DNA of 64,000 nt from Berberis thunbergii (Eukaryota > Streptophyta > Magnoliopsida > Ranunculales > Berberidaceae). Positions 6,794-60,582 of this stretch are shown piece by piece; the stretch's first letter is position 1; each line of letters opens with the position of its first letter. Where the stretch lies: NCBI GenBank assembly GCA_003290165.1, contig QNQO01000647.1, positions 1 through 64,000 of the forward strand, written 5' to 3'. The notes under the pieces were generated by a model that saw only the letters and a list, made by a program, of their open reading frames with translations, was not told where the DNA came from and did not search any database. The translations under genes and the position numbers were made by a program.

Positions 6794-7667
6794 ATGGCCA
6801 GCTTTCCTCTGAACAGAAAAAACTTCTTATCATGCTCGCTCAATTAGCTTGCCTGCTAGATCTCATCCTCTCACTCTTAAAGTTGAGGAGCAATTGTATA
6901 GATTGAGGTCTTTTGAAGCCACTTCCTCATCAGTCTCTCTTTTAAAGGGTCTTAAAGACTTGCATGATTGTGTTGAAGACATGCTTCAGTTACCATTAAC
7001 ACAGCAAGTCCTGATCAAAGAAAGATCCCACACATGCATCGATGGGGTATTGAATGGATCCCTACTGATGTTGGATGTATGCACTACTACTAGAGATATT
7101 TTATCCCAATCGAAGGAATGCATGCAGGAACTTCGATCTTCTCTCCGTAGAAGAAGAGGAGGAGAAATCGGTATTGCAAATGATATTGGATTGTACTTGA
7201 AATCTAGAAAGGAAGTGTTGAAGGAGATGCATAAGTGTTTTATTGATCTCAAAAGATTGGAGAACAAGCGTGTTTTTTCGTTTCTCTTAGACAAGGATCA
7301 CAACCTTGTGGCTATCATTGGTATGATAAAAGAAGTAGAAGCCCTAACACTCTCCATGTTTCAGTCACTTTTTTTGTCCGTATTTTCAAGTGCAAGATCG
7401 AACCAGAGGGGTTGGTCTTTCGTCTCCAAATTGATGAATAACAAACGTGCTCAAGGAGAGGAGACCAACATCAGTGAAATGGAGAAGTTTGATGTTGCTT
7501 TATCTTCACTCGTGAGCAACAAGTCATGTAAAGGTGACATCCAAAATGTGCAGAAGCAGTTAGAGGAACTAGAGTTGATCATCCAAGGTTTTGACTATAG
7601 ATTGGAATGTGTTTACCAAAGTTTGATTAAGACAAGAGTCACCCTTCTCAACATCTTAAGCCAGTGA
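6794..7667 (+). pseudogene. DUF241 family gene, N-terminal frameshift
   Basis: The conserved body (from LPARSHPLTLKVEEQL at 6849 to a TGA at 7665-7667) is open for 272 codons and spans the plant-specific DUF241 domain (Pfam PF03087, function unknown). Visible family blocks are LPLTQQ, REVE-like KEVEALTLSMF, WSFVSKLMNNK and the C-terminal LIKTRVTLLNILSQ. The natural ATG at 6794 (MASFPLNRK) is out of frame: a run of six A follows AACAG where copy 2 has five, so translation from it misreads after about nine codons. No in-frame ATG replaces it before the domain. The gene is single-exon. It is either a recent pseudogene or there is a base error in the A run. Neighbours at 10.2, 13.0 and 21.2 kb are paralogues. 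Confidence 0.75.
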
Positions 7668-10151: not shown

Positions 10152-11045
10152 ATGGCTTCATCTCCTCTGAACCGAAAAACTTCTTACCATTCTCGTTAAA
10201 TTAGCTTGCCATCTAGATTTCATCCTCTGACTCTCAAAGTTGAGGAGCAATTGTGTAGATTGAGACTTTCCAAAACCACCTTCTCCTCATGCTCTTCATC
10301 ATCCAGATGCTCCAGTTTAACTGGTCTCAAATACTTTTATGAATGTGTGGATGATTTGCTTCAATTGCCATTGACCCAACAAGCACTTGCACATGAAAGA
10401 TCACATAATTGTATTGATGAGGCTCAGAAAGGATCCCTACAGATGCCGGATGTGTGCAGCGCTAGTAGGGATATTCTGTCTCGGATGAAGGAATGCACAC
10501 AAGATCTTCGGTCATCTCTTCGTAGGAAGGGAGGAGAAGTTTATCTGGAAAATGAGGTTGGGTTATACATGAAATCAAGGAAGGAAGTATGCAAGGTGGT
10601 CCAGAAGTGCCTTGTTGACATAAATAAAACAGAGAACAAGCCTGTGTTCTCTTCACTTGTAGAGACGAATCACAAACTTGTGGCAATCATTGCCATGGTA
10701 AGAGAAGTAGAAGCAGTGACATTGTCAATGTTCAAGGCACTCTTGGTATCTATTTCTAGATCACAATCAAGACAAACAGGATGGTCTCTGGTTTCAAAGT
10801 TGATGAACAACAAGCGCATAACGTGTCAAGGGGAGGAGGCTGATAACAGCCAAATGGAGAAGGTAGATGTTGCCTTGTTGTCCCTCTTGAACAACAAGTC
10901 CTGTAAGCGCATTTTAGTCCAAAATGCACAGAAGCAGTTGGAAGCACTAGAGTTCAGCATCCAGGGCTTTGAAGATGAGTTGGAGTGCATTTACAAAAGT
11001 TTAATCAAAACTAGAGTTACCTTTCTCAACATCTTAAGCCAGTGA
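10152..11045 (+). pseudogene. DUF241 family gene, premature stop at codon 16
   Basis: From the ATG at 10152 the frame reads MASSPLNRKTSYHSR and then TAA at 10197-10199, where paralogues encode Ser (TCA). After the stop the same frame is open for about 280 codons to a TGA at 11043-11045. It covers the whole DUF241 domain: LPSRFHPLTLKVEEQL, LPLTQQ, SRDILSRMKE, SLRRKGGE, VREVEAVTLSMFKALL, WSLVSKLMNNK and LIKTRVTFLNILSQ. One base change (C to A) separates it from an intact gene, and no frameshift has accumulated. That suggests recent inactivation, a sequencing error, or use of another start or splicing. Single exon. Duplicated upstream region shared with copy 1. Confidence 0.75.
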
Positions 11046-12869: not shown

Positions 12870-13038
12870 AGCTAATAGTGGGGACATTGGAGAAACATCA
12901 CCTCACCTAGCATTAGATCCAGATCAAACCTGCAGCATACCTGAAACAAGTTGAACAAGATGAGATTCCATGTCCAAGTCAATGTGATACAAACTGAAAC
13001 ATCATCATCTCAAACCCTCCTTTTCTCAAAGAAAAACA
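12870..13038 (+). promoter_or_regulatory. Promoter-proximal region of DUF241 gene 3
   Basis: The block GGAGAAACATCACCTCACC, AGATCCAGATCA, CTGAAACAAGTTGA and GTCAATGTGATACAAA leads straight to the ATG and is repeated at 22625-22800 without a gene after it. A clear TATA box could not be fixed. Confidence 0.5.
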
Positions 13039-13932
13039 ATGGCTGCTCCATCAACCACCAAAACTTCTTCTCATGTTCGCTCTTTGAGCATACCATCTAG
13101 ATCTCATCCTCTGACAACTGAAGTTGATGAGCAGTTGTCTCGACTGAGGTCTTCTGAATCCGCCTCATCATCACCATTATCACTGTCATCATTATGCAAC
13201 AAACTGAGTTGTCTTCACAATTTGTATGATACTGTGGAGGATTTACTTCAGTTACCACTTACCCAACAAGCGCTCGCAACTGATAGGTCCAGGAAATGTA
13301 TGGAAGACGTGTTGGATGGATCTCTCAGACTTGTTGATATGTGCAGCTCCACTAGGGATGTTTTGCTTAAAATCACGGAGGGTGTGAAAAATCTAGGATC
13401 ATCCCTGCAGAGACAAAGAGGGGGAGAACATGGTCCTGCGAATCATGTTGGAGAATATATGATATCTATCAAGAAGGTGAACAAGTTGATCTACAAGTGC
13501 CTTGGAGATCTGAAGAAAATGCAAAACAAGCATGCCCTTCCTTTCTCACGGGATGAAAACCTACTAGCCATCATTGGCATACTAAGAGAAGTGGAAGGTA
13601 CAACCATCTCTATGTTTGAATCCCTCTTGTCTTCTGTGTCCGTGCAAAGACGAGGATCAAAACTAAGTGGTTGGTCACTGGTTTCCAAATTGATGAACAA
13701 CAAATGTGTAGCATGTCAGGGGGAGGAGGCCAACATCAATGAATTGGAGAGGGTGGAAATAACATTGTCATCTGTCATGAATAAGTCATGCAAAGGCATT
13801 GAAGTAGAGCAGATTCAAAACTACCAGAAACAGTTGGAAGCACTAGAGTTGAGCATTGATGATAAATTAGAGCATGCTTTCAGGAGTTTAATCAAAATAA
13901 GGGTCTCCCTCGTCAACACCCTAAATCATTAA
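13039..13932 (+). CDS. DUF241 domain protein (intact)
   Basis: Uninterrupted single-exon ORF of 297 codons. The ATG sits in a good plant context (AACAATGGCT) and lies at the paralogues' start position. The N-terminus is Ser/Thr-rich (MAAPSTTKTSSHVRSLSIPS). The DUF241 domain (PF03087) fills about residues 20-297: SHPLTTEVDEQLSRLR, LPLTQQALATDRS, DGSLRLVDMCSSTRDV, SSLQRQRGGE, LREVEGTTISMFESLL, GWSLVSKLMNNK, QKQLEALELSI and LIKIRVSLVNTLNH. No signal peptide or membrane span is apparent. The family is plant-specific, usually 280-300 residues and found in tandem clusters; its biochemical role is unknown. With 37.6 kb it is one of two intact members here. Neighbouring copies upstream are broken. 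Confidence 0.9.
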   Translation: MAAPSTTKTSSHVRSLSIPSRSHPLTTEVDEQLSRLRSSESASSSPLSLSSLCNKLSCLHNLYDTVEDLLQLPLTQQALATDRSRKCMEDVLDGSLRLVDMCSSTRDVLLKITEGVKNLGSSLQRQRGGEHGPANHVGEYMISIKKVNKLIYKCLGDLKKMQNKHALPFSRDENLLAIIGILREVEGTTISMFESLLSSVSVQRRGSKLSGWSLVSKLMNNKCVACQGEEANINELERVEITLSSVMNKSCKGIEVEQIQNYQKQLEALELSIDDKLEHAFRSLIKIRVSLVNTLNH

Positions 13933-14533: not shown

Positions 14534-15253
14534 TGTGGGATTTCGTGGCTCACAATTTCAATCCGTAGAGTTTGAAATGGAATAGGATTGCTATATATGT
14601 GACAGAATACAGATCTTATAAAATAGGATCCCTATTCTATAGGGATTTCTATTCTTATTCAGAAGTCAGATACAGATCAGGCGTACAGGTTTTCTTTTGT
14701 ATTCAAACAAGAACACAGATGGGTTTTCAGGTCCTATTAGGCCTCAAAATAGGAAGCAATGATTGCTATAAATATCAGCCTATTCCAGGGATTATTTATT
14801 GTATTTTCTGAGGCAGAAAACAGGGTATTGGGGCTGGTTTTTATCGAGAGAAAACAGAATATTGGGCCTGTTTTTATTCACAGAAAACAAGAGTTTATTC
14901 GCAGCCATTGATCACAGTTTTCAAGGTAAGGTTTGAGTATTACCAAGGCAGAAAACTGAAGAGAATCTGCTGATTTTTCTTTGTATCGAAAGTGTAGGGA
15001 AGAACGGTACAATCCATGAGTATAACGGATTACTTTCAGATTGAGAGTTGATAGAACTGGAAACTGTTCTCAAGAGTTTGTACTTCTCAGATTACTCTTT
15101 CATAATAAAGAAGCGCGTCGTTGTCCCGTGGATGTAGGCACATTGCCAAACCACGTATATCTTGTCTATTTACTGTTACTAATTGCTAGACTCTTACTTT
15201 TACTTGCAAGTACCAATTAGGTTCGGGCGTGTTTCGAGGATAAACATACAACA
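14534..15253 (+). repeat. 5' LTR of Copia element
   Basis: TGTGGGATTTCGTGG to ATACAACA. It contains CTATAAATATCAGCC, a likely TATA box, at about 14766-14775. Compared with the 3' LTR it has 16 extra bases near 15150. Confidence 0.93.
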
Positions 15254-15255
15254 AG

Positions 15256-15267
15256 TGGTATCAAAGC
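15256..15267 (+). promoter_or_regulatory. Primer-binding site (tRNA-iMet)
   Basis: TGGTATCAAAGC, two bases past the 5' LTR, matches the initiator tRNA-Met complement TGGTATCAGAGC with one mismatch. Confidence 0.88.
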
Positions 15268-15298
15268 TCCAGGGTTGGTGTCTACAAGGTTTGACGAT

Positions 15299-18200
15299 AT
15301 GTCAGAAAGGAAAGGCGAAGTCTACGCAAAGGTTCATGGATTCGATGTTCTTCGATTCAATGGAAGGAACAATTTTAGCAGTTGGCAGTCAACGGTGATG
15401 GATATACTGATTAACAATGATTTGGCAGACACGATAGAAGGTGAACCAAATGTGAAACCAACTGGTTGGGATGCAAATAAGTTCAAGGCAATGGATAGGA
15501 AGGCATGTAGTACTATCCGGCTATGTCTCGATATGGGAGTTGCGTATAACTACCCTGATGAAAAGACGGCAAAGTCAATTTGGGATAAGTTGATGAATAC
15601 CTACCTCAGGAAGGATCAGATGAGTTTACTATACCTTCATAAAAAGCTCTTCACATTCAAGATTGAACCAGGTAAACTCATGACCGATCATGTTACTGAA
15701 TTTGAGTGTTTATTTTCAGATTGCATCGGTTTAGGTGCAAACTATGATGATAATGTCAAATCTTTGTTGTTATTGACTTCTTTATTACCTGAGTGGGAAG
15801 TATTGGTCGACACGTTGGTTACCAATAAGACAGAAAGTTTAGTTTATGCAGATGTGATTTCTGTGGTGCTTACGAAAGCTGCTCACAAGAAGGATATGGC
15901 TGATGATGCACAAGTTCATGGTCTTATGGTCAGAGGCCGGAATCAGGGTAATAACAAGGGCAATAACAGGCAAGGCAATGGTCGGAAGAATAGAAGCCGC
16001 TCACAGTCTCGCGGAAGAGACATGTCAAAGGTTGAGTGTTATACTTGTCACAAGAAGGGTCATTTCAAAAGGGATTGTCCTACTAGGAAGGATAATGGCA
16101 ACAGGGAAGAGAAAAATGGCGAGTCGAATCTGGTTGGATCTATACATGATGATGTGGATATCAGGATTACTGGAGATCTAGCAGAGGCTCTTATGGCAGA
16201 TAATGGTGATCATCTGTATGGAGGATGGGTGCTTGATATCGCACGTCTTTTCATATGTGTCCTATTAGAGAGTGGTTTACTAGTTACCGTGAGGTGAAGG
16301 GTGGATCAGTTTATATGGGAGACTCCAGAGTATGCAAGACTAGAGGTATTGGCACAGTTCATTTCAGTTTGGCAGATGGTTCAGTTAGGAAGCTTACAGA
16401 GGTTCGTCATATACCAGATCTTTCGAAAGGTCTGATTTCTCTTGGTGCGCTTGAGGCTCAAGGCTTCAAATTTGTTGGTGAGAATGGCATGTGTTGTGTC
16501 TACAATGGTGACAGGGTAATGCTTACGTCAGTTAGACATGGAAATCTGTATTATCTTCAAGGAGACGCAGTTGAAGGTGGAGCTATGGTCTCAGAGGTTC
16601 TTGATGAGAAGAGCGTATCCCAGACTCAGTTATGACACATGCGCTTAGGGCATGTGGGTGAGGCAAGGTTGAAGGCATTGAGCAAGCGAGGCTTGCTTGG
16701 CAGTGAAAAGCTTGGGAAGTTGGACTTTTGTGAGCACTGCATCTTCGGGAAGCAGACTCGAGTTAGTTTTGGTTCAGCGGAGCATACTACTGCGGGTATT
16801 GTGGATTACATTCACACGGATGTTTGGGGCCCATCCAGGACAGTGTCCAAAGGTGGTTCTAGGTGGTTCGTCAGTTTTGTTGATGACTTCAGCCGGAGAG
16901 TATGGATTTACACCATGAAAAGAAAGAATGAAGTCACTGACATCTTCAAGAAATGGAGGGCGATGGTAGAGAAGCAGACTGGCAGAGTTATCAAGGTGGT
17001 CAGATCCAACAATGGTGGAGAGTACACTGAAGACCCCTTGAAGGAGTATTGTCAGGAGCATGGAATTCGCAGGCATTTCACAGTGAAGAAGACACCACAA
17101 CAGAACGGAGTGGCGGAAAGGATGAACCGCACACTTCTAGAGAGAGCACGGTGCATGTTGTCTAATGCAGGATTAGGCAAGATATGGTGGGCTGAAGCCG
17201 TATCTACGGCGTGTTATCTCATAAACAGGTCTCCATCATCAGCGATTGAATTCAAAACTCCTATGGAGGTATGGTCTGGTACTTCTACGGATTATTCGCA
17301 TCTGAAAATATTTGGTTGTCCTGCTTATTTTCATGTGAAGGATAATAAGCTGGGGGTAAGGGCAAGGAAGGCTATATTCCTTGGTTATCCAGGTTCAGTC
17401 AAAGGCTACAAATTGTGGTGCTCTGAAACGGGCAAGTGGGAGATTTCTAGAGATGTAAAGTTCCATGAGGAGGCACTCTTAAGGCCTAAGTGTGAGAGAT
17501 GCAAGGATGGATCTCCGGTATGGAGAGGTGATAGCTTTGATGATGAGGATGATTTTCTGCAGGTGGAGCTTGGAACTCCTAGGTCTGGTACACAGGATAG
17601 TTTTTCGGATTCAGGTCATGGTAATGATTATGGGATTCATGATACAGTACAGGGTGATCCAGAGGTTATTGTAGATGAGGAGGTTCCTGTTGAGGAGCCA
17701 CAGGTACAGCATGAGCATGAGCAGCAGGTTTGTCAGCCGTCTTTGGCACCACAGAGAGAGCGTCGGATTACTAGAGCACCCATCAGATATGGATTTGAGG
17801 AAATGGCAGCCTATGTTTTTTCAGTTTTCGGAGAGTATGATGATGCACCTACTAGGTATAAGCAAGCTTGTAAAAGCTCGCATATGGATGAGTGGAAGGT
17901 GGCTATGGATGCGGAGATACAGTCTCTTCACAAAAATCATACATGGGAGCTGGTGACACTTCCAAAGGGGAACGGGCGATAGGATGCAAGTGGGTGTACA
18001 CTCTGAAAGACGGCATTCCAGATTCCAAAGGGAATTCTGCAGGTGTAAGATTCAAGGCAAGATTGGTAGCAAAAGGGTTTGCACAAACAGAAGGTGTGGA
18101 TTATAACGAGGTTTTCTCTCCGGTGGTTAAGCACACTTCTATCCGTGTCCTATTAGCTATGGTGGCGCAGTATGACTTAGAGCTCGAGCAACTAGATGTC

Positions 18201-19422
18201 AAGACTGCTTTCTTGCACTGTGATCTGGAAGAGGATATTTACATGGTTCAGCCAGATGGATATGCTATTGCTGGGAAGGAAAACAGGGTATGCAAACTAA
18301 AAAAGTCTCTATACGGGTTGAAACAGTCTTCTCGTCAGTGGTACTTGAGGTTTGATACTTTTATGTTGAAGCAAAAGTACGCACGAAGTCAGTATGATCA
18401 TTGTGTTTATTTCAGGAGGCTTCGAGATGGTTCTTACATCTATTTATTGCTTTTACGTGGATGATATGCTTATTGTTGCTAGGAGTAAGCGTGAGATAGA
18501 GTTGCTAAAGGTTCAGTTGAGCAATGAATTTAAGATGAAGGATTTGGGTCCAGCGAAGAGGATACTCGGGATGGAGATAGTAAGGGACATGAAGCTTGGT
18601 AGATTGTCTTTGTTGCAGAGGCAATATCTTGATAAGGTAGTCAGTAGATTTGGCATGGATAGGGCCAAGTCGGTCAGTACTCCCTTGGCAGCTCACTTCA
18701 GGCTCTCTGGTTTGCAGTCCCCTACTACTGTAGCAGAGAAGGAATACATGTCACAGGTTCCTTATGCTAGTGCGGTTGGCAGCTTGATGTATGCCATGAT
18801 TTGCACACGTCCCGACATTGCACACGCAGTGAGTTTGGTTAGTCAATACATGGCTAATCCAGGCAAAACCCATTGGCAGGCAGTCAAGTGGATTTTGAGG
18901 TATATTCAAGGCACGTTGGATGTCGGTTTGGTCTATGAGAGATCGTCAGTTTCAGCTGTGACAGGTTATGTTGACTCAGATTATGCAGGAGATTTGGACA
19001 GGCGTCGGTCTACTACAGGTTACTGTTTTAAATTGGCAGGGGGTCCTATATCTTGGCGGTCCATGTTACAGTCAGTTGTTGTGTTGTCTACTACAGAGGC
19101 AGAGTATATGGCAGTGACAGAGGTAGTGAAAGAGGCTATATGGCTTCGAGGTCTGGTTAAAGATTTGGGTGTTACTCAGAGGGATATTACAATTCTTTGT
19201 GATAGTCAGAGTGCCATCCATTTGGCAAAAAATCAGGTTCATCATGCGAGGACCAAGCATATTGATGTCAGGTTTCACTTTATCAGAGATATCATCGAGG
19301 ACAGAGTTGTGATACTAGAGAAAGTTGATACAAAGGAGAATGCAGCTGATATGTTGACGAAGGTAGTACCCAGGGTCAAGTTGGAGCACTGTCTCAACTT
19401 GATCAGACTCTCTCAGTGTTGA
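15299..19422 (+). pseudogene. gag-pol: Copia gag-pol polyprotein, broken
   Basis: Gag opens at ATG 15299 (MSERKGEVYAKVHGFDV) and includes the UBN2-like capsid (SIWDKLMNTYL) and a CCHC zinc knuckle (CYTCHKKGHFKRDC, about 16048). A frameshift near 16240 destroys the protease D-S-G. The integrase region has the HMRLGHVG zinc-binding lead-in, preceded by TGA at 16633 where Trp is expected. The DDE core shows HTDVWGP, then RSNNGGEY (Asn for the catalytic Asp), then NGVAERMN. A frameshift near 17968 precedes RT (GCKWVY, QLDVKTAFLH), and another near 18455 falls just before YVDDM. RNase H is open (YVDSDYAGD, STTEAEYMA, TKHIDVRFHFIRD) to a TGA at 19420. It needs at least five repairs to be functional, so it can move only with helper proteins. 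Confidence 0.92.
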
Positions 19423-22810: not shown

Positions 22811-22903
22811 TTGGATCTGCAGCCCCAAAGACAGCTAGCTGTGTGCAATTTTTAGGTGCTTAAAACTTAACAATCTATAACTACAAATCACTCTGTTAAC
22901 AAT

Positions 22904-23065
22904 CACTACAAGAAATTCGCAAAATAGCGGCGGTTATTTAGCGACGTTTTTGAAAACCCGCCGCTAAATACGTTTATCTAACGACAGTTGAATGGCAGTC
23001 GCAGAATAATATTATTTAGCGACGGTTATAGTTATTTGCGACTGTGTATAACCGTCGTCATTAAT
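22904..23065 (+). repeat. CACTA left TIR and subterminal repeats
   Basis: The terminus CACTACAAGAAAT is followed by GCGGCGGTTATTTAGCGACG-type motifs in both orientations. Confidence 0.85.
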
Positions 23066-24330
23066 AAAAATCATTTTAAAACAAAACTCGAAAAAACCTA
23101 TCCTTTATTTTCTCGATCTCTACTCTCCCTCCTCTCCTCCTCGTCTGCTCGTCTACCACACACCACCTCTGTTTTTATGATCTGAAACCCTCTCAGAATC
23201 CGACCCACCACCACCAACCCCAAAACAAATTTTAGCTCTTCAAGCTTCAACTTCTTCTACGTGCATCCGCTCGCCAGTCGCCTCCGCTCGCTCCAGCCAC
23301 TGTCGTCTCCTGCGTGCATCTTCTTCATCAGGTGAGTTATTTACTTCTTCTTCATCGACTCTTTTTCTTCTTCTGTTGTTATGTTCTTCATCTTCAGGGA
23401 AGTGTTTACTCATGAAAATGGGGTATCGACATATCTTCTCTTTCGATTCGAGAGATCCCAGATCCTCTCGGCTACACTCTTGCTTCCCAAGGTCAGATTT
23501 TATCCATCTCTCTTATTTTTTTTCTGAATCCCCAATCAATTTTATGTAAAAACAATTTTTGTTGTATTTTCGATTTGGGTTTTTTTTTTTTTTGAGGATG
23601 AGGATGATTCCACAACTGAATCATCCACAACTGAATCATCAGAATCCTCATCAACTGAATCATCCTCAACAAATTTTGTTGTATTTTCGATTTGGGTTTT
23701 TGTTTTGTTCTGAATCACCAATCAATTTTCTTTTTCTAAGGATGATTCCATAGGCAGAAGAAGGATGCAGAAGCCAATTGGAAGTCTCAGGTATGTATGT
23801 TTCAGATTTGGGTTTGTTTTGTGAAGTGCTTAGGGTCAAATACTTGTATTTTAAAGTGCCCATTAGGTCTTTGACAATTTGTTTTAGAGATCAAATTGAT
23901 TGGAGTTCTCGATGTAGTCTAAATTTTCATGTTTAAATTGGCTGCAAATTGTAACCTAGGTTGCTAATTGTAGCACCTAGTGAAGGTAAGTCCATATCTA
24001 CTAATGGGGTGATTTCATATTTACTTCCCAATGGGTCCCCACTCACATGAATGGGAGCCTTGATGATTCAGTTCTAGGTCAAGCTGAGTTGTGAAGGGAC
24101 CTTTCAGTCGCAATCTCATATTTTCCGGATAATGATCCCAAGTGGAAAGTATTTGCTTCGTACATGTTTATTAAGGAAGCGGTATGTCTTCTTGTTTCAC
24201 TGATTTAGTGGATTTGTGTTATTGATTTGTTGTGTTGAGTAGCTTTCTTTAGTATTTTACGGTTTTGTTTTTGTGGTTTTATAGTGTTACTTATATTTGC
24301 AGTTTCTGAAATTCAGTTTTAATGTCACTT
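23066..24330 (+). other. CACTA interior, left part
   Basis: About 23100-23330 is pyrimidine-rich, like a plant 5' UTR, ending CATCAGGTGAGT, a plausible splice donor. About 23540-23750 contains a duplicated segment (TTGTATTTTCGATTTGGGTTT twice). About 23590-23670 is an imperfect array of CTGAATCATC units. No protein family is recognised. This may be the promoter and first exon/intron of a captured gene, by inference. Confidence 0.4.
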
Positions 24331-24344
24331 ATAGTGTTACCAAT

Positions 24345-24926
24345 CATATGGAAGAAGGTGCCCATACGAGGTTGGTAGGTGGCATCCAATGGCAAATTTA
24401 TAACTGGCCTGGCTTACCTTTAAGGACTGCAAAAGCTTCTTGTCTTGAATCCCAGTTGGAAGTATCACGGTGACAGATTGAAAATACAGGTTCATTGATG
24501 ATTGCCCGTGTATTGGGGTCGATAAAAGTTGCTTCATATATTTGAATGGAATCGAAAAAATGGCAAAACATAACCATGTATGGCAAGAAACCACTATCAT
24601 ATTTGAATTATCTTCTTTGAGTAATGGGTGAACATCAGTAACCATAACAGAGATGAGGATCCATTTGCACTTTCAGAAGCAAAAGCCCTTAAGCTACTCT
24701 GGCCATATATTGCTACTGGAAAGTTAACGAGCTCCTGCAAAGAAGTTGCACATGTTTTCTTCTCCCCTGTCACATGAGGTCCTCTGCAGACCTCCACTGC
24801 TTCGCTGATTAGACAGTCCATATCATTCGTGGCATGAAACATAGATCGGCGACTAGCATATTCCATGGGTATCTTTGAGGCAATTGAATGTGGTAAGAAG
24901 GATCTCGGTGGATAAGAAAGTCTCAT
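24345..24926 (-). pseudogene. Captured BURP-domain gene fragment (PG1beta/AroGP-like)
   Basis: Minus-strand frames read MRLSYPPRSFLPHSIASK, then GEKKTCATSLQELVNF, and after a frameshift YEATFIDPNTRAIINEP and ICHRDTSNWD. These are blocks of the BURP domain of polygalacturonase 1 beta-like cell-wall proteins, including the CH-type Cys-His landmarks (VSCHTW, SICH). The N-terminal FxxY-repeat region and signal peptide are absent and at least two frameshifts occur. It is the only captured piece here on the minus strand. Confidence 0.72.
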
Positions 24927-25339
24927 ATTTGGCAGGTTGAACAATGTTCCGTCTTGCATTGTATTCTTGCGGAAGAATGTTCTAGTCTAGATGCTTCTGA
25001 TTTGTTATGATGACTGCCCTTGGGTGTGTACACGTATCCATAGAAGTTGGTTTTCCTAGCTAGCTCTTTGTTAGAGCAAGTTTGCTGCCTTGCAGAAGTC
25101 AGGTACTTGATCTGAGTGTTTCAACTGCAGTTTGTTAAATCAGAATTTGTTATATAGATATGCTTGAAAGTTGACCTGATGTATTTGAATTGGAGTTCAT
25201 TTTGAATTAAATAATCATAATCATCCTCACTTCAAAAAATTTTGGTTGTGTTATCATGCTGTTCTTTGTTTCTCACACTGAATGACCCTTCACATGTACT
25301 TTTGTGCCATAGAAAAAAGTAACAGTGGTAACCATTTGT

Positions 25340-25475
25340 CAATCCACAGGTTACCACTCCTGGCAGGTGCTCCTGGTTCATTAGGAGCTACATATTGTTC
25401 CCCTTACTTGGCGGTTGACGGCGGCTTCTATTCTTGCCCTGCAGGACAGACAACATCCTCTGCTGGTTCCAGGTT
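25340..25475 (+). other. Exon-like segment, unrecognised
   Basis: AG at the left and GGTTAG-like sequence at the right bound an open stretch reading LPLLAGAPGSLGATYC, then SPYLAVDGGFYSCPAGQ. I do not recognise the family. Its base composition is less AT-rich than the DNA on either side, as for the other captured exons. Confidence 0.3.
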
Positions 25476-25845
25476 AGTATCAGTCTATTCATGTAAAGCT
25501 CCAAATTATTTTTATATATTTATTTGATTTACAAATCAATTTATTATAAATACTTATAACTATGTATGTTATCCCTGTCTTTTGTAAGGAAAATTATGTT
25601 GATGAATACTGCAATAATGCCATAGTAGTTTCTGAAATAAGCTCAAATGGTTATGGTTGTCCTCTCAGCTTAATATGCTTTGAGGATGAGAACAACCACA
25701 AAAATAAATATATAAAATAAAATCTGATAAAAAGGATATAAATATTAATGGATGCATGTTAATTTTGTGTTTGTGTTGGGGCCGCAATACTTTTAACCTT
25801 TATCAACTTAAACATCCTTATATTGAGCTGCCAGTATGCATCCAG

Positions 25846-26121
25846 GTACCTACTGAAAGGATTATGTTGGAATCAGATTCACCTGATGCACTGCCAAGAT
25901 GGAAATCAGACTCTCTGTTGTTGTTGAAATACACTGTTGTTGAAAGGATTATTTATCTTTCCACTGTTGTTGAAATACACTGATATAAATCTTTTCAGGT
26001 GTTGAGTTACGTTTCATCGTTGCTTGACATGCTAGAAGATGAACTTGCAGAACTCAGCTACAAAAATGCATTGCGCCTATTTTCCTCATATCCGGGTTCA
26101 GAGGTAAAGGAAGAAGCATAA
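25846..26121 (+). pseudogene. Captured TatD-type DNase gene fragment
   Basis: Two exon-like pieces in the right order. The first (25846 to about 25920), behind a CAG acceptor, reads VPTERIMLESDSPDALPRWK. The second (25999-26121), behind TTTTCAG, reads VLSYVSSLLDMLEDELAEL, then SYKNALRLFSS, and ends in TAA. These match the C-terminal end of plant TatD metal-dependent nucleases, where the Asp of E-(S/T)-D-S-P is a metal ligand. The catalytic barrel's N-terminal metal-binding HxH is not present. Only the last part of the gene was taken, with its intron. Confidence 0.78.
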
Positions 26122-26399
26122 CATCGTTGTTCATGTTATAAACAAGACGCATTCCATGTCACTGCATAATGTTATGTATATATATATATATCTGCAAGTT
26201 ACATACAAACGTGTAAACTATATGTAACTATCTTGTTCTTCATAAATGGAAAATGCTTTTAAGAGATAAAGTTGAATTTATTTCTCTCTTTTGGGAATCT
26301 CATTTGGGTTAAGAGTTGCCTGTGTATTGGTTTCTTTCTTACTTATGAAGATATCTTCATTGGGGTTACTTAACTTTTTTTAGGTTGATAACCTTGACT

Positions 26400-26532
26400 A
26401 ATTTAGAATCCATTATGTCCTTGTCAAGGCTTTTGCTGATGAAATTGGGATCCCATTCATGGAAACAAGTGCCAAAAATGCGATAAATGTGGAACATGCT
26501 TTCATGGCTATGGCTGCTGCAATCAAGAACAG
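26400..26532 (+). pseudogene. Captured RAB GTPase exon (RABD/Rab1-like)
   Basis: The frame reads [20 protein letters not shown], then [17 protein letters not shown], and ends at a GT donor (GGTACTG at 26532-26534). ETSAK is the G5 nucleotide-binding motif and the flanking residues are those of plant RABD (Rab1/Ypt1) proteins of ER-Golgi traffic. The upstream part containing NKxD is garbled (stop codon near 26400). The P-loop and switch regions and the prenylated C-terminus are missing, so no functional GTPase could be made. Confidence 0.85.
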
Positions 26533-27039
26533 GTACTGATTCTATTTTATTGTACTAGAAATAAGACCATTTAATTGCATGGAACTGATTTTGGTGTTGC
26601 ACTGCCTCGACCGATCATCTGTGAGTGTTGTCCCAATTCGAAATTGTGCATGCTGTCCTAAAAAATGCTCCAAAAATAGGGGACTTTTCAAGCCAAAACA
26701 GAGCACAACATAAACTGACCTGCAGTACAAACTGCAATCTTCTATACAGCAGCAGTAGTAGTGACACACCCATATAGACATATATGTGTACTCCATTGTG
26801 TTTCAATCATATTTAGACATATTAGTGAAATCATATTTAGACATATTGTGATTCAATCATATCAAGCCGTAGTAGTTTTCCTTTGAAGGAAAATGAATCA
26901 GAAATTGAGTAACAGAATGGATACTTCAATTAGCTCTTATGTCATGAATCAAACCAGTAAATACGATTATGCAATATTCTTCTGTCAGTTTCTACAAAGT
27001 ATCCTGTTTTTTTGTTATATTAGCTGTTAAAAGAGCTGC

Positions 27040-27150
27040 GGGAATTTAGCTAGAATGTGGGCTGAACATCATGAAGCTGCAGTTTCTTGTGCCCGCTTTA
27101 ATGCTGACTGGTACTTGGTACACACAAGAGAACAAAGACTTGATAAAGTA
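27040..27150 (+). other. Exon-like segment, unrecognised
   Basis: An open stretch reads MWAEHHEAAVSCARFNADWY, then LVHTREQRLDK, and ends at GTAAG (27149). The family is not recognised. It lies just upstream of the YTH piece and may be another captured exon. Confidence 0.3.
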
Positions 27151-27228
27151 AGATGATCAAAGCAATTCTCCTTTAGAAAGAATTGTTTTCTGCATTTCTT
27201 TTCCTTTCATAATTTGTGTTTTTTGTGT

Positions 27229-27303
27229 AAGTATATCATCAAATCCTTTGTGATCAAATCCTACAGTGAGGATGACGTGCATAAAAGCTTATATTACATC
27301 AAG
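27229..27303 (+). pseudogene. Captured YTH-domain exon (ECT-type m6A reader)
   Basis: The 25 codons read KYIIKSFVIKSYSEDDVHKS, then LYYIK, followed at once by a GTATG donor. F-(V/I)-I-K-S-Y-S-E-D-D-V-H-(K/R)-S is the start of the YTH RNA-binding domain of plant ECT m6A readers. The aromatic-cage residues lie further on in the domain and are not included. One exon fragment only. Confidence 0.82.
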
Positions 27304-27340
27304 GTATGTGACAATGTGATGTATTTTCTTTTTGGTTCAG

Positions 27341-27415
27341 ATAATGACAGCAAAAGCTCATTCTGACATCAATGATAATCTTCCAGCCCTTCAAAAGTTA
27401 GACTCAATGCTTATT
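27341..27415 (+). pseudogene. Captured RopGEF (PRONE domain) exon
   Basis: It sits between an AG acceptor (TTGGTTCAG, ends 27340) and a GTAAG donor (27416). It reads IMTAKAHSDINDNLPALQKL, then DSMLI. The N-(L/I)-P-A-L-x-K-L-D-x-M-L-I block belongs to the PRONE catalytic domain of plant RopGEFs, which activate ROP small GTPases. Only one exon of the domain is present. It lies 37 bp downstream of the YTH exon, so the two exons share a chimeric intron. Confidence 0.75.
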
Positions 27416-27599
27416 GTAAGTGTTCCCTAATGAATCTTGCTAGGACCCATCTATCAAACTATCCATATGGTCATCTCCCTGCAACAAGTCATCATATCTC
27501 CTCCTGCTCAAGGGAGAATTCTGCCTTCAGGTTAGTATAAGACATTATTAATATTGATCACTTAATTCCATTTTTGCGTTATTGACAAGATAATTTGTC

Positions 27600-28011
27600 G
27601 AAAATTACAGATACCAATGGTCTAAGTCGAGGGCCGGGACAATTCTTTGTAGGGTGCAGTAGTGCTAGTGGGTCTGCGGAGTTTAATGGACAATGTCACA
27701 ACCACAATTCCAGCAGAAACTCCATTGCTCCTGTGCAAATTTTCATGGTCCTGCCCCTCATTTTGCTAGGGGAGGTCGCAGCAGCTATGCTCAAAGAGCA
27801 ACACCCAGCTATAGGACCATATCAAGCTACCCACGCGTGGGACGCGACGTCTTCTGAGAATGGTCTGTAGTCGGTTCCAGAAGCTTATACTTCCAGGCAT
27901 TCTTCATTAGGATGGCATAGCAATGAAAGGAATGGTAGACCAAGGATATCATATGATAGATTGCGCCCTTTTTCTGATGATTTAGTTGCTCGTGATAGGA
28001 TGGTATCTGAG
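27600..28011 (+). pseudogene. Captured gene fragment, possibly RING E3 ligase (HIP1-like) linker
   Basis: From about 27873 to a GTATG donor after 28011 the frame reads VPEAYTSRHSSLGWHSNERN, then GRPRISYDRLRPFSDDL and VARDRM. Such R/S-rich text preceding the RING domain is found in HIP1-type plant E3 ligases. The RING itself is absent, so the assignment is tentative. Upstream (27600-27870) is a 91-codon open stretch of no recognised family that may belong to the same gene. Confidence 0.4.
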
Positions 28012-28216
28012 GTATGCTATTTTTCTTTTTGATTCTGTGATGATCAGTATATTAGCAAATTATTCTGCACGCTGAAACCCTTGCCATATATCTGACCTAT
28101 AGATCCACCAGGGCTGGGGCTAAATGGGTTACAGATGGTGACACTAGTTATTATTAGAAAGTAAACTAGGTGTGAGCTCATATTTTCGTGTCCTCGTGAT
28201 ATCTACCCTCAAACAG

Positions 28217-28513
28217 GGATTTGGGGTGTTATGAAGCACTTGTATCACAAAATTTCAGACATTGCATCGAAGAAATCTCAGAAGTATGGTTACCTGTTAG
28301 AGCAAGAGAAGTAAGCAGACTTTGTTTTCTCTTACTTGAAAATGCATGGATATTTCATATTGTCGACCAAATTTGACAAGTAACTGGACTCTCAATTGCA
28401 TGGTTTTCTGCAGGGCTCTCAATTCATTGCCTGACCTCCCAGATTTCGAGTTGTCATTGAGACCTGAGGACTACAATTTGCCAGAAATGGATCCAGCATG
28501 GGATGGTGAATAA
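28217..28513 (+). pseudogene. Captured two-exon 3' gene end, family unknown
   Basis: An exon at 28217-28310 (VMKHLYHKISDIASKKSQKY) ends at GTAAGC. After a 103-bp intron an AG at 28413 joins in phase to ALNSLPDLPDFELSLRPEDY, then NLPEMDPAWDGE and TAA at 28511. The phase match across GT-AG argues that this is the true end of a real gene. I do not recognise which gene. The following 120 bp read like a 3' UTR. Confidence 0.5.
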
Positions 28514-28904
28514 TGGGAAATCAAAGTTCGTACACTTAAAGAGCACCTCAAAGACGGGGAAGGTGGAACAGAAACATAGTGAGATCGGGCTGGCTTTGTT
28601 GTGATTTTAATATTGTTTTTTTGAAAATTTGATTATGTCTATTGACAATTTGTAACAATTTTAATTTGTAATTTTCTTCTAGACAATGTATAATATTGAT
28701 TTTGAAATGAAATTAAAGTTCCTCTTAATGTATGATGATGATATCATATGAGTTTAGTTTAGTGTCGTTGTTTATATTTGATTTTTATTTGAGTCTAAAA
28801 GTTGTAGTGCATATGTTGGATAAATTATCTGCACCCAATGAAAAGAAAACACTATAGGTTGAAAAATGTGATTTTTATATGGTAAAAAAATTTGAATTAT
28901 CAAA

Positions 28905-29215
28905 GGGAATTTAGCGGCGGTTGCAAAGCGTCGCTAAAAGGCAAAAAGTTGGATTGTTCATTGAATTTTGTCGACGGTTATAAACCGTCGCTAAATTGTA
29001 TTTAGCGACGGTTTATAAACGTCGCTACATTAAACCGTCGCTATATAGTATTTAGCGACGGTTATGCCAGCGGTTGTTTAAAACCGTCGCTGAGTGACCT
29101 AGTGACGCCTTTATTAGCGGCGGTTTTGTAACCGTCGCTGTTTTATTTAGCGACAGTCATAACCGTCGTTGTATACCTTTGGCGACCGTCGCTAAAATAC
29201 AGTTTTCTTGTAGTG
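28905..29215 (-). repeat. CACTA right subterminal repeats and TIR
   Basis: At least ten copies of GCGACGGT or ACCGTCGC in both orientations are followed by GTTTTCTTGTAGTG. TSD AAT comes next. Confidence 0.85.
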
Positions 29216-29218
29216 AAT

Positions 29219-37550: not shown

Positions 37551-38384
37551 CTAATTAAGAGAATTCAAAAGGAACACTCTGAGTTTGATCAAATGCTTGA
37601 ATGTGCTTTCTAATCCATCGTCGAGATCTTTGAGGCTCAACTCCAATGCTTCCAGCTCTTTTAGTGCATTTTGAAGGTGTACACTTTCAAGCCCTTTGCA
37701 TGACTTCTTGGTGGTGATTGCATTTAATGCAAGATCAACTTGCACCACTTCGCTCTTGTTAACTTGTTCACTTTCACATGCTATGCGTTTGGTGTGCCTC
37801 AGTTTTGAAACCAAAGACCAATTTGAACGTGTTTTAGGTATGGAAACAAATGCCAAGAGAGACTCGAACATGGAGATTGTCAGTCCCTCTACTTCTCTAA
37901 CCATGGCAACAACATCACGGCCATTGGTTAAGAGTGTAAACTCGCGTTTGTTCTCTGTTTTCTTCAAACTTTGAATGCACTTGCGGATCTCCTTGCTCAT
38001 CTTCTTTCTTGCGATCATATATGTACTGATTTCATCACCATGGCTTCTCCTCCTTAAGACAGATTGTAAATCTCTTGCGTTTTCCTTCATTTGGGAGAAA
38101 ACATCTCTCACCGTGCCACACGCATCCACAAGCCTAAGAGATCCTTCCAACATCTCGTCAGCCCATTTCTCATGTGTGAGTGACAATTGAACCAAATCAT
38201 TAAGACAATTGTACAAACCATTTAAGCCACTCATATACTGGCAAATTGATGATGACGATGAAGATGTGGCTTCTGAAGCCTTTAATCTGCACAATTGTTC
38301 CTCAACTTTCAGGGTGAGTGGATGAGAGTTTGAAGGCAGGCTGATGGATCTAATATGCTTTAGGTTCATAGCAGAGGAAGCCAT
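37551..38384 (-). CDS. DUF241 domain protein (intact)
   Basis: Intact single-exon gene of 277 codons, TAG at 37551-37553. The start is chosen at the ATG at 38384 (AAAATGGCTTCC), because MASSAMNLKHIRSISLPSNS aligns with the paralogues; an in-frame ATG 20 codons upstream gives a non-conserved extension. Domain landmarks: SHPLTLKVEEQLCRLK, EGSLRLVDACGTVRDV, SVLRRRSHGDE, YMIARKKMSKEIRKC, MVREVEGLTISMFESLL, NWSLVSKL, ELEALELSLKDLDDGLE and LIKLRVFLLNSLN. There is no signal peptide or membrane helix, and the function is unknown as for the family. The 5' end and promoter are duplicated at 51.27-51.76 kb. Confidence 0.9.
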   Translation of the reverse strand: MASSAMNLKHIRSISLPSNSHPLTLKVEEQLCRLKASEATSSSSSSICQYMSGLNGLYNCLNDLVQLSLTHEKWADEMLEGSLRLVDACGTVRDVFSQMKENARDLQSVLRRRSHGDEISTYMIARKKMSKEIRKCIQSLKKTENKREFTLLTNGRDVVAMVREVEGLTISMFESLLAFVSIPKTRSNWSLVSKLRHTKRIACESEQVNKSEVVQVDLALNAITTKKSCKGLESVHLQNALKELEALELSLKDLDDGLESTFKHLIKLRVFLLNSLN

Positions 38385-38800
38385 TTTGTTTTTCTTCTTG
38401 AAACAAATATTGCAGTGAAGACTAATGAGTCCTTGAATCAACACATAGAGAGATTTATATATGCAAACACATTCAATAATACAAGGGAGACAAGAAGAAT
38501 CTCATCCGCCTCATCACAAGGTTGTGTAGGCATGCATGCAAGTGATATTGATCTGAGATCCAACATTATAATAGGCGATGTTTTTCAATGTCTCTTTTGT
38601 GTTTAAAGCTTCTAAATTATGAATCATTTGTTGGTGTAACAATGCAATAAGTGATGAGATCAATATAAAGTATGAAGATATATGAATATTATGTGCACGG
38701 ATGGCATCGCATATTATCTCCTGGCTAGCTACCCAACAGAGATGGTAAGTAATAATGGCCATGTGATTACCAACTTAGACAGAGAGTTCTTGAATGCCGC
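38385..38800 (-). promoter_or_regulatory. Upstream region of the minus-strand DUF241 gene
   Basis: This block is repeated nearly base for base at 51371-51760 (shared GAGATTTATATATGCAAACAC, which contains a TATATA box at about 38455, about 75 bp before the ATG). Conservation between the two copies reflects duplication, not necessarily function. Confidence 0.5.
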
Positions 38801-39827: not shown

Positions 39828-41897
39828 TTACCTGAATTTAGGATTTGTCTTCTTGCTTCGAGAAGACCTTCGAGGAACATCTACCGTGGGAGTTTGTATT
39901 GTGGTAACCTCCCGTTCTTTTTCACTAGTGTTTTGCCCCGCCTTTGCTGCTTCTTTTTCAAGTGAAGTTTGAAATTCAGCAACCACTGCCTCCATGCCTA
40001 TTCGTCCAATTGCTGACTGCACAGCCTTAACGTTTTGGGGTGTTAGGCAAGCCATGAGCGTTGTGGGATCTTCCCCAGTCCTCCGTAACCAGCGATCGCG
40101 CGAAGTACCTCCACTACTTGCATTTGGTTTTCCTCGGAGTTAGATATGGGGTAGACAGACCTGGCTCCACTGCTACTTTAGCGTCTGAATCCGCAGCCTG
40201 ATTCGCTGTTTCAATCCCTTTGGGCGAGTAACCTGCATCCCTACAATCATCCAACAACCCAAACTCTGCCTGCTGATCTGTTTCAGCGCCTGCTGTCTGG
40301 ATCGCAGCAGTTGGTACTTGTAAGTCAGCCTGTATTTCCTGTGTGACATCAGTACTAGACGGCTTCTTAATCGAACCAGTTCGAGGAAAGTGACCTGATT
40401 CGCGAACGGGAGAAAGAGCTCCAGCTGCGACAGTTCCTGGAACCACCTCTGCTGGACCGAAACAGAGCGCAGGCTCCCCTATTTCGGTGTTGTTGGCTGG
40501 CTGAGACAGCCCATTCTGTGCGGTTAGAGACTGCGTTTCATCGGCTTTGTGCATTGGCACACCTGACATCACCGAGTGCCCAGACACCTTTTTCACACCT
40601 GAAACAAGCTGCCCAACCTGAATTTCACTAACAGTTTGTGACGCCGCCGCGTGATTAGAAAGGGTACTCTTTGATTCCGGATTGACATCCTTATCATTTG
40701 GAGTCAGCTTTGGGTGGTGTCCAAGAACCTGATCAATCTCTGAAGTTGTATACCCCGCTTCTAATAGGCATTCCTCCGTAGATTCGGATTTGACCCCGGT
40801 TTGATCATGCTCTAATTTCTGACCCGTTGTTTGAAAATCCGCTGGAGCATCCTCCTCTTCCTCAGTATTCTCCATTAGAGCCTCAAAAGTGTTTGACAAA
40901 ACCACCTTTCCTGGATCAGTTGCCCCCGGCTTGGTCTCCACGACTCCCTCCGGAATCTCCTTGCCTTTGCTATTTTTTGATCCACTCACACCCACATCCG
41001 AATTTGAAGAATTTTCCTTTCTAAGCACTGGAACATAATGTTGCTTGGTAATAATATTTCTGCCGTGGATTTGACTACCTTCTCAGTCTTACCAATGTCC
41101 GATACTCGGCCTCCGGCCTTAATGTTGACCTTCTTGCGACAAACAGTCTCCTGATGCCCTATCAAAGAACAAAAATCACAATATTTGAAACCTGGGTATT
41201 CTATCTTCTGCCAAAAACCTCTATTATTGGCTCTATCAATCCATACTCTGTTTGGTAATTTGTCTGCCAAAGTCATCTCCATGCAAACACGGGCAAAGCC
41301 CGGGCGTGACAGGCAACGAGTATGATCATCCATCCGTAAAAAACCACCAAAAGAGTTCACAATTGCTTTTAAAATAGGGGGATGAAATAAATGTAAAGGT
41401 AAATTAGGCAACTCTACCCATAACGGCACCGAGATCGGGTCCTCCTTCAAATTGAAACCATCATGCCATCGAAAAGCTTTGAACCGAACTCCACGGATCA
41501 AAAAGGAGTCTCTCGACAGAACTTTCTTTGCTTCCTCCTCAGATTGAAGGCGGACTAACACGTGCCGTTGATTTAGTAAACCGAGTGAGAAATCGCCTAA
41601 AATGCCCCAAGTTCTGTGAATCGAATCTCGAATATCTGCCAAAGTTGGTCGATAGCTGGAGAATTTTAGGACAATCACGTGTTTTTCCATGAAAACTTCT
41701 CCACGAACTTCATCCGTGGCCGTGATTCCGATTGCTGGGGCCCCTTCTTTGCAGAAACGGGTTCCTTCGACCGGAGTCTCCGCAGCGGCTTCCACCAAAA
41801 ATTTTCCCAAAATCTGGGCGAAAGAGGGCTTAGAATCCCCATGACCCGGTCCCGTGGGGGGAGGGGTGGAGGCTGGGGCCGTGACCATCACATCCAA
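39828..41897 (-). pseudogene. LINE ORF1 (DUF4283 / zinc knuckle), frameshifted
   Basis: It starts at 41897 (MDVMVTAPASTPPPTGPGHG). The N-terminal half carries an RRM-like DUF4283 fold typical of plant L1 ORF1 (DIRDSIHRTWGILGDFSLGL, RHVLVRLQSEEEA, ISVPLWVELPNLPLH, GFARVCMEM). A CCHC-type knuckle follows (CDFCSLIGHQETVC, about 41180-41140). A frameshift near 41020 continues into a long low-complexity acidic/Ser/Thr region, and after another frame change near 40085 the basic end RRSSRSKKTNPKFR stops at 39828. The protein would bind the element's RNA. With ORF2 missing, the element relied on another LINE. Confidence 0.78.
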
Positions 41898-41974
41898 AAA
41901 TCAGTCCGTACCGGCTGGCGGAGGACGGCTGTCCTGTCGGCACACCCCGTACTTGGCTCCCGTGAGAGAGAGAG

Positions 41975-43165: not shown

Positions 43166-43319
43166 CTCTCCCTTCAAAAATTAAATAATTTAATGATAAG
43201 GTTTCTACCCATATAAGTTTTTGTGTTTTGACAAATTGTGGAGGCCAATTGGGACTAAGGGTGAAAAATAAAATCTTCTCAAGATATAATTTTATTAACC
43301 CCATAAACTACGGAAGAAT

Positions 43320-44560
43320 GCCTCCTAGAGGCGGGTTATACAACTTCGGAGATTGCAAATGCTATTGGAATTCAAGAGCAGCCGACACAGCCAACAGGTA
43401 ACATAATCTCAGGGGCCAAGAGTGGTCTTTCCGACGACATGCCAAATGAAGTTATCTGTCCGGAACATCAATTTGTGGCAAGGTCGCACGATGACATTGG
43501 GGATGCTCAATTGGGGCTTCCTGGATCAGAGACACGAGCTTCATTGGCAGGGGAATTAGGAGTGGCTTCGCCCCAACCAGCTCACGGCCCCAAACAGAAT
43601 GCGCTCACCACCAGTCCAAGCCCTGCGTCAGAGCACGGTCTCAGCCAGACCATGGCTCTGGGCACTCCTCGGGTCCAGCCTGATCATGGACCCAGCCCGT
43701 CCTTGACTCAAGCAGGACAGCAGTCAGACCTCGGCCCACATCCGAGCACGGCCTCCCAGTCCACGGCCCCAGCCTCTTCACGGCCCCAACCCAGGGACGC
43801 GATACCTCAATCAGCACGCGACTTGCTCGCCGTTGGTGACTATTTAGTGACGCAAACAAAATCGAGTGGAATGATACAGGAAGTAGAGGCTGCCCTGGTG
43901 AAGCCGACAGTGATGAAACGTTTGGCAGAGGTTTTGGCCAAGCGCGCTCAATCCGCGGTAACTGGTAATTTTTCAGTGCCCGTGGCAGCAAGGAACGACA
44001 AGGACGGGAGCTTGTTTGATGTCGTCGTCCAGCTGTTTGAGGAGAACCGTGCTTTGCAACTAAAGAAACAATCTATGACCACTAATACACTTAATAGCGC
44101 CACAGATGATAGTGACGAGGCTGCGTCGGAATCGGAGTTGGGGCCGGAATCACATGCTATTAATGATATAAATTTGGGGGCGCACTCCGATAAGGATCTA
44201 CAACACAAAGTCAAATCGGCGGCCCTTCCGAGCAAGGTCGTAAGACTAAGAGGGGCAAATCTTGCTCCTGCGCTTAAGATGATGGAAATTTTATGTTTTG
44301 GAATGCTCGTGGGATTGGTAATAAGGCCACGAGGAGGAGGTTAAAAAATATGGTTGTGGATCGTAGATTTCATTGCCAGCATTGGTGATATGTTGGCTTT
44401 ATGTATTTTGGTTTTCGAATGCGGCCCCAATTTTTGTTTTGGTTATATCACGGGTAAATGTACCCCCGTATTGATTGTAACTCAATTTTCTTGAAAAGTA
44501 ATAAAGGTCTGGCATTCCAGAGGTGCCCTCCACACTGGAGGTTTAATAATAATAATAAAA
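43320..44560 (+). mobile_element. LINE fragment: ORF1 end fused to ORF2 start, ORF2 deleted
   Basis: The ORF1 C-terminus runs into the first codons of an ORF2 endonuclease. Within about 60 bp this becomes non-coding 3' UTR with AATAAAGGTCTGGCATTCC and an A/T-rich end (TTTAATAATAATAATAAAA). Thus nearly all of ORF2 is missing. The same architecture is seen at 0.4-1.3 kb and 34.9-35.6 kb. Confidence 0.6.
43439..44395 (+). pseudogene. LINE ORF1 C-terminus plus ORF2 endonuclease start
   Basis: The 301-codon open frame is Pro/Ser/Gln-rich at first (PQPAHGPKQNALTTSPSP), then helical (DGSLFDVVVQLFEENRALQL) and acidic (ATDDSDEAASESELGPE, LGAHSD), then basic. At about 44281 it meets ATGGAAATTTTATG; shifting one base gives WNARGIGNKATRRRLKNMVV, the N-terminus of an L1 endonuclease whose catalytic domain opens with W-N-x-R-G. 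The frame then fails. The junction shows that ORF1 and ORF2 are closely adjacent in this LINE family. Confidence 0.65.
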
Positions 44561-60580: not shown

Positions 60581-60582
60581 GT

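What the first reader, a model, noticed from the sequence alone, without database searches (positions are those of the whole stretch)
22904..29215. CACTA transposon that has collected fragments of at least five unrelated genes
Between clean CACTA ends with a perfect AAT TSD lie recognisable pieces of a BURP protein (minus strand), TatD nuclease, RABD GTPase, YTH m6A reader and PRONE RopGEF, plus two or three more exon-like segments of unknown origin. No transposase is present. Introns and splice signals are retained, so the pieces were copied from genomic DNA, not mRNA. All but one lie on the same strand, so a single read-through transcript could join exons from different genes. Transduplication by CACTA and Pack-type elements is known, but this combination looks new to me.
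Basis: partly seen in the sequence, partly recalled or inferred. Interest (0 to 1): 0.88.

Follow-up and report, generated by a model that had tools for sequence, protein, structure and literature searches.

The report
CACTA transposon carrying captured gene pieces
A plant jumping gene with no enzyme of its own carries broken pieces of several unrelated genes, probably five or more; it is a rich but ordinary example of a kind already described in soybean and other plants.

Summary
Window 22904-29215 (6,312 bp) is a non-autonomous CACTA element: identical 12-bp inverted CACTACAAGAAA ends, a 3-bp AAT duplication, and GCGACGG-type subterminal repeats crowded at both ends and absent inside. A six-frame Pfam scan finds no transposase but finds BURP (minus strand, most of the domain, two frames), a Ras/Rab C-terminal exon and a PRONE RopGEF exon. 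TatD lies below Pfam's cut-off, and a 25-residue YTH start is weak. Five more exon-like segments, some with stops, each with at least one splice-like site, have no identified gene. A leader-like stretch with splice-donor-like sites lies inside the left end. The pieces look decayed, and one fixed joining of all plus-strand exons gives no ORF longer than shuffled controls do. Best reading: a Pack-CACTA/Tgm-Express-type transduplication element. The precedent is close: soybean Tgm-Express1, a 5.7-kb CACTA element with five unrelated gene fragments and 12 distinct transcripts, 11 of them chimeric (PMC1947982). So this is a new member of a known kind. Donor genes and sister copies were not checked, because the host-genome search did not complete (13 identical calls).

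The parts
22901..22903 (.). left target-site duplication AAT
22904..22915 (+). left terminal inverted repeat CACTACAAGAAA
   Evidence: 12 of 12 identical to the right end
22923..23027 (.). left subterminal repeat block (5 copies of a TTTAGCGACGGTT-like motif)
23080..23790 (+). CT-rich leader-like stretch with predicted short exons (to 23331; 23398-23491; 23741-23790); its start is my choice
   Evidence: donors 10.3, 7.2 and 11.3 bits at 23332, 23492, 23791; acceptors 8.7 and 8.0 at 23398 and 23741; scoring matrix recalled, not trained
24030..24181 (+). exon-like segment A, gene not identified, one internal stop
   Evidence: donor 8.6 bits at 24182, no acceptor of 6 bits or more at its start; frame; best Pfam YgbB 0.23
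24359..24977 (-). BURP domain, most of it, in two pieces of different frame
   Evidence: Pfam PF03181 3.7e-15 (24977-24657) and 1.7e-18 (24583-24359)
25350..25472 (+). exon-like segment B, gene not identified
   Evidence: acceptor 7.8, donor 10.4 bits; no Pfam match
25843..26121 (+). TatD-type nuclease C-terminus: two exon pieces and a stop codon
   Evidence: Pfam PF01026 0.0089 over 25843-26085, 3e-5 as joined peptides, both below the curated cut-off; acceptor 9.1 bits at 25999; no donor scored at the end of the first piece
26417..26532 (+). Rab1/RABD-type GTPase C-terminal exon
   Evidence: Pfam Ras 3.4e-5, PDB Rab-1B 3.3e-11; donor 6.8 bits at 26533
27024..27147 (+). exon-like segment C, gene not identified
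   Evidence: acceptor 6.9 bits, no donor of 6.5 bits or more at its end; no Pfam match
27232..27303 (+). start of a YTH domain (weak)
   Evidence: PDB YTHDF1/2/3 best E 0.0011; Pfam 0.021; donor 10.7 bits at 27304
27335..27416 (+). PRONE (RopGEF) exon
   Evidence: Pfam PF03759 2e-4 six-frame, 2.3e-6 as the exon; acceptor 8.7 bits at 27341; its donor scores under 6.5
27610..28011 (+). exon-like segment D, about 400 bp, one stop in its longest frame, gene not identified
   Evidence: donor 9.0 bits at 28012, no acceptor of 6 bits or more at its start; best Pfam DUF5763 0.068, below cut-off; no protein match
28216..28513 (+). exon-like segment E, two predicted exons around one intron, gene not identified
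   Evidence: acceptor 9.8 bits at 28414; the first exon has no site above threshold; no match
28910..29196 (.). right subterminal repeat block (15 motif copies), strongly hairpin-forming as single-stranded DNA
   Evidence: 28900-29215 folds at z -10.06 against 100 shuffles
29204..29215 (-). right terminal inverted repeat
29216..29218 (.). right target-site duplication AAT

Best explanation
It is a non-autonomous CACTA element of the Pack-CACTA/Tgm-Express type. Its two ends (inverted repeats plus asymmetric subterminal repeats) keep the signals that a transposase supplied in trans would use. Its interior was replaced by patches of host genomic DNA (exons with adjoining intron sequence) from several unrelated genes, probably five and perhaps as many as ten. 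Shown: the ends, the TSD, the gene family of three pieces (TatD moderately, YTH weakly), no transposase found, BURP split between frames. Inferred: that the pieces came from this genome, in several steps, by filler-type repair or template switching during aberrant excision; mobilisation in trans; occasional transcription from the left leader or from outside, with splicing of the captured exons; no protein function.
For: Ends, TSD and subterminal repeats. Pfam/PDB identities, against one BPS1 and one chance-level hit in the right neighbour and none in the left neighbour. Plus-strand splice donors of 8 bits or more: 10, against a mean of 3.8 (sd 2.3, max 12) in 100 Markov shuffles; minus strand 2 against 2.9. 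Published precedents: Tgm-Express1, Tpn1, Pack-TYPE elements, CACTA elements of grapevine and Chenopodium.
Against: Donor genes and sister copies were not seen. YTH and TatD stay below Pfam's cut-offs, and the joined TatD peptide finds no TatD in the PDB. At least one shuffle reached 12 donors, 4 of the 10 strong donors (23986, 24893, 25103, 27531) belong to no assigned piece, and some segments were delimited with the help of these sites. Acceptor-like sites are not specific to the plus strand (8 bits or more: plus 9 against 6.0, minus 7 against 3.5). Five segments have no identified gene. Four of five identified pieces on one strand is not significant. One paper gives a 5-nt TSD for the rice and maize CACTA elements it annotated, while three give 3 bp.
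Confidence: 0.9

Rival explanations
1. An expressed exon-shuffling cassette: the left leader drives a spliced transcript through the captured exons and yields a chimeric RNA or peptide that is kept by selection or that regulates the donor genes.
For: Leader-like exons with donors just inside the left end; donor excess on the plus strand; Tgm-Express1 is spliced into chimeric transcripts, though from the host gene's promoter.
Against: BURP is split between frames and segments A and D carry stops; the longest ORF of one fixed joining of 14 exons, 83 aa, is within 200 shuffled controls (mean 64, sd 22, max 184; other splice combinations not tried); no expression data; the insertion is not evidently inside a gene.
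Confidence: 0.12
2. A Helitron, nested in or mistaken for the CACTA element, captured the genes; Helitrons also carry several fragments in one orientation (recalled).
For: Same-strand fragments; one hairpin plus CTRRT-like site near 24805 (mean 0.17, max 1 in 60 shuffles).
Against: That site lies inside the BURP piece and upstream of eight of the ten pieces; its stem is only 6 bp; the CACTA ends and TSD enclose everything.
Confidence: 0.03
3. Same element, but the capture went by fusion of two neighbouring CACTA insertions (the Pack-CACTA local-hopping model) rather than by filler repair. This concerns the capture step only and does not compete with the best explanation of what the element is.
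For: This is the model proposed for Pack-TYPE elements.
Against: No subterminal motif at 3 or fewer mismatches in 23060-28900, and only one 12-bp end-like site at 2 mismatches (25228, chance level), although decay could have erased more; pieces of about 70-620 bp from different genes would need many rounds.
Confidence: 0.3

Closest known systems
Tgm-Express1, soybean wp allele (Zabala and Vodkin 2007, PMC1947982; abstract, Background, part 1 of 2 of Results, and Discussion read)
   Same: CACTA element of similar size (5.7 kb; ours 6.3 kb) with exon and intron regions of five unrelated genes
   Different: Different genes. Tgm-Express1 sits in an intron of F3H and its transcripts are shown by RT-PCR; ours lies among BPS1 genes with no expression data. 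The subterminal motif here is GCGACGG-like, not the TTGGCAG/AATCTTACAG type given for Tgmt* and Tgm-Express1
Pack-CACTA / Pack-TYPE elements (Gisby and Catoni 2022, PMC8903248; abstract and sections 4, 8, 9 read)
   Same: Non-autonomous TIR elements with captured coding DNA
   Different: The worked examples in section 9 are PIF and Mariner elements with one or two captured patches; ours has more. That paper gives a 5-nt TSD for its CACTA elements; here it is 3
Tpn1 family, Japanese morning glory (PMC5105172; passages read)
   Same: Non-autonomous En/Spm-type elements whose interior is replaced by host genic sequence, one giving chimeric transcripts
   Different: The ends and the captured sets were not compared here
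Tgmt*, putative autonomous soybean CACTA (PMC2613891; passages read)
   Same: 3-bp TSD and asymmetric hairpin-forming subterminal repeats (few left, many right)
   Different: 20.5 kb with a transposase gene; ours has none

Membership tests
CACTA (En/Spm, CMC) superfamily | Inverted termini beginning CACTA | tested here: met
   12 of 12 bp identical
CACTA (En/Spm, CMC) superfamily | 3-bp target-site duplication | tested here: met
   AAT/AAT; 3 bp stated, but 5 nt
CACTA (En/Spm, CMC) superfamily | Subterminal repeats in direct and inverted order at both ends | tested here: met
   5 left, 15 right, 0 in 23060-28900
CACTA (En/Spm, CMC) superfamily | Tnp2-type transposase gene (autonomous members only) | tested here: not met
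   No transposase family at E<=1 in six frames; so non-autonomous
CACTA (En/Spm, CMC) superfamily | Other copies with the same ends in the genome | not testable with these tools
   13 identical genome-search runs unanswered (5, 12, 17, 21, 28, 38, 45, 52, 54, 58, 62, 65, 68); no second copy in the window
Pack-CACTA / Tgm-Express type | No transposase, captured gene fragments between the ends | tested here: met
Pack-CACTA / Tgm-Express type | Exons with adjoining introns, so copied from genomic DNA | tested here: inconclusive
   Splice-like sites beside several pieces, not all, and two TatD pieces with sequence between them; introns not matched to donors
Pack-CACTA / Tgm-Express type | Intact donor genes elsewhere in the same genome | not testable with these tools
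   Host-genome search unanswered; the rest of the window holds no donor
Helitron | 3' hairpin followed by CTRR, no target-site duplication (recalled definition) | tested here: not met
   TSD present; one weak internal site only

The most novel reading that the evidence does not exclude
A 6.3-kb CACTA element that has gathered exons of about ten unrelated genes behind its own spliced leader, so that it is a self-promoted exon-shuffling cassette making chimeric transcripts without a host promoter; this would exceed Tgm-Express1 in number of donors and differ in where transcription starts.
Probability: 0.15. Interest if true: 0.5.

Novelty: new member of a known kind. Interest (0 to 1): 0.27.

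Why it matters
It is a compact, well-bounded case of multi-gene transduplication. With the host assembly, each captured patch could be dated against its donor, which would tell stepwise capture from one scrambled repair event; the 2026 review (passages) leaves the capture of unlinked genes open. By itself it adds an example, not a new kind of system.

Tried and rejected
Helitron origin: one weak hairpin/CTRR-like site, wrongly placed. Chimeric coding gene: the longest ORF of one fixed exon joining is within shuffled controls. Internal remnants of a second CACTA element: no subterminal motif, one chance-level end-like site. Donors or sister copies inside the window: only short matches, best E 0.002 over 55 bp. 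Identity of segments A-E: Pfam gave only sub-threshold hits (YgbB 0.23 for A, DUF5763 0.068 for D), and the protein collection gave none for E and D; whether that collection holds plant proteins is unknown to me, so the blank says little. From memory, segment D reminded me of the region upstream of the RING in MBR-type E3 ligases; no call supports this. A second CACTA end was sought at 59997: that match lies inside a chitin-binding/chitinase-like frame, so it is not taken as an end. PDB searches for BURP and for TatD pieces gave no true relative; segment C plus PRONE gave RopGEF8 third at E 0.84.

Papers: PMC1947982 abstract, section 3, part 1 of 2 of section 4, and section 8; PMC8903248 abstract and sections 4, 8, 9; PMC2528002, PMC13317346, PMC2613891, PMC8978399, PMC5105172 and PMC4938662 passages only; other papers as search listings (one search listed none). 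The Pack-CACTA paper of 2019 is not held.
Full report
What is there. The window reads as plant DNA (inference from plant-type families such as PRONE and BPS1), 39.4% GC. Within it, 22904-29215 is bounded by identical 12-bp inverted ends CACTACAAGAAA, the only two exact copies in 64 kb, and by a 3-bp AAT duplication. The first 200 bp hold 5 and the last 320 bp hold 15 copies of a TTTAGCGACGGTT-like motif (3 or fewer mismatches), and 23060-28900 holds none. The right block folds far better than its shuffles as single-stranded DNA (z -10.06, 0 of 100 shuffles as good). A few-left, many-right arrangement with a 3-bp duplication is described for the soybean CACTA element Tgmt* (passages).

Gene pieces. 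I translated the whole element in six frames with stops as X and scanned Pfam at E<=1. Four families came up: BURP (two minus-strand frames, profile positions 2-115 and 144-215 of 216), Ras, PRONE and TatD; no transposase did. BURP and Ras exceed Pfam's curated cut-offs; PRONE does so only as the exon alone (27.2 against 27 bits). The Ras piece is a Rab1-type C-terminal exon (PDB Rab-1B, 3.3e-11). TatD is weak in the scan (0.0089) and better with its two exon peptides joined (3e-5), still below the cut-off, and the PDB search of the joined peptide finds no TatD. YTH rests on 25 residues: Pfam 0.021, and PDB E 0.0011 with 10 of 10 listed sequences being YTHDF proteins. The same scan of the right neighbour (6.3 kb) gave BPS1 (7.8e-4, the local gene family) and ANAPC1 (0.17) only, and of 2.5 kb on the left gave nothing. 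Five further exon-like segments (A-E) have at least one splice-like site each but no named gene; A and D carry a stop in their best frame.

Splicing signals. With recalled dicot splice-site frequencies, the plus strand has 10 donors of 8 bits or more against a mean of 3.8 (sd 2.3, max 12) in 100 Markov shuffles; the minus strand has 2 against 2.9. Acceptors are not strand-specific (plus 9 against 6.0; minus 7 against 3.5). Of the 10 strong donors, 6 close assigned exons (two in the leader, then segments A, B, YTH and D) and 4 close none; since some segments were delimited with these sites, the agreement is partly built in. Several expected sites are missing: no donor scores at the end of the first TatD piece, of segment C or of the first exon of E, and PRONE's donor is under threshold. 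This fits exons copied with introns from genomic DNA but does not prove it.

Coding value. BURP is split between two frames. One fixed joining of all 14 predicted plus-strand exons (1,848 nt) has a longest ORF of 83 aa; 200 shuffled controls give mean 64, sd 22, max 184. Other splice combinations were not tried. I see no sign of a maintained chimeric protein.

Setting. Intact BPS1 frames lie at 6.8, 10.2, 13.0 and 37.6 kb. Parts of the left flank (20.4-22.7 kb) match stretches at 6.1-13.0 kb around those genes at 67-85% identity; the right flank shows only two short matches of 52 and 35 bp to DNA further right. No Pfam domain lies in the 2.5 kb left of the element. The insertion therefore lies among the BPS1 genes, not evidently inside a gene.

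How it most likely works. A transposase from a related autonomous element would act on the conserved ends; the interior is passenger DNA. Patches of host genes were probably picked up during faulty repair after excision (inference). The fusion-of-neighbours model for Pack-TYPE elements is possible, but no internal motif remains, and the one internal end-like site (25228, 2 mismatches) is at chance level. The 2026 review says an undiscovered mechanism may exist for unlinked genes (passages). If transcribed, the captured exons could be spliced together, as shown for Tgm-Express1, where all isolated transcripts began at the host gene's promoter.

What is known. Tgm-Express1 is nearly the same thing: 5.7 kb, CACTA, five unrelated genes with exons and introns, 12 distinct transcripts of which 11 hold captured exons. 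Tpn1 elements of morning glory, Pack-CACTA elements, and CACTA elements of grapevine and Chenopodium also carry host gene pieces. Paper searches on CACTA capture and on this set of gene names with CACTA (one paper, on rice pollen, with three of the five terms) showed no report of this element; the papers behind those listings were mostly not opened.

What could not be done. The host-genome search did not complete (13 calls), and the genome is not available as a file. Donor identity, age of each capture and sister copies stay open. Verdict: a new member of a known kind, interest 0.27.

Noticed in passing
6813-7664 +, 10200-11042 +, 12988-13929 +, 37554-38501 -: Four intact BPS1 (PF03087) reading frames, a weak BPS1 remnant near 34.6 kb, and left-flank DNA at 20.4-22.7 kb resembling the surroundings of the first ones (no BPS1 domain there): a gene cluster split by transposons.
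   Followed up: partly
15221-19422 + and 60577-62095 +: Two copia-type retroelement coding regions; domains tested in one frame of each (integrase and SH3-like), the rest read from the ORF list.
   Followed up: partly
59800-60156 +: A chitin-binding domain (Pfam 1.1e-9) running into the start of a class I chitinase domain (0.0027, below cut-off) and a stop, directly before a copia region and three GCGACGG-like motifs at 60497-60567: perhaps another displaced gene piece.
   Followed up: partly
40989-41900 - and 43307-44341 +: A DUF4283 frame, and two frames on opposite strands (40114-41082 - and 43307-44344 +) sharing the string TEECLLEAGYTTSEI: perhaps related non-LTR-type elements.
   Followed up: no
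46363-47361 +: A 333-aa open frame with no Pfam match at E<=0.001.
   Followed up: no
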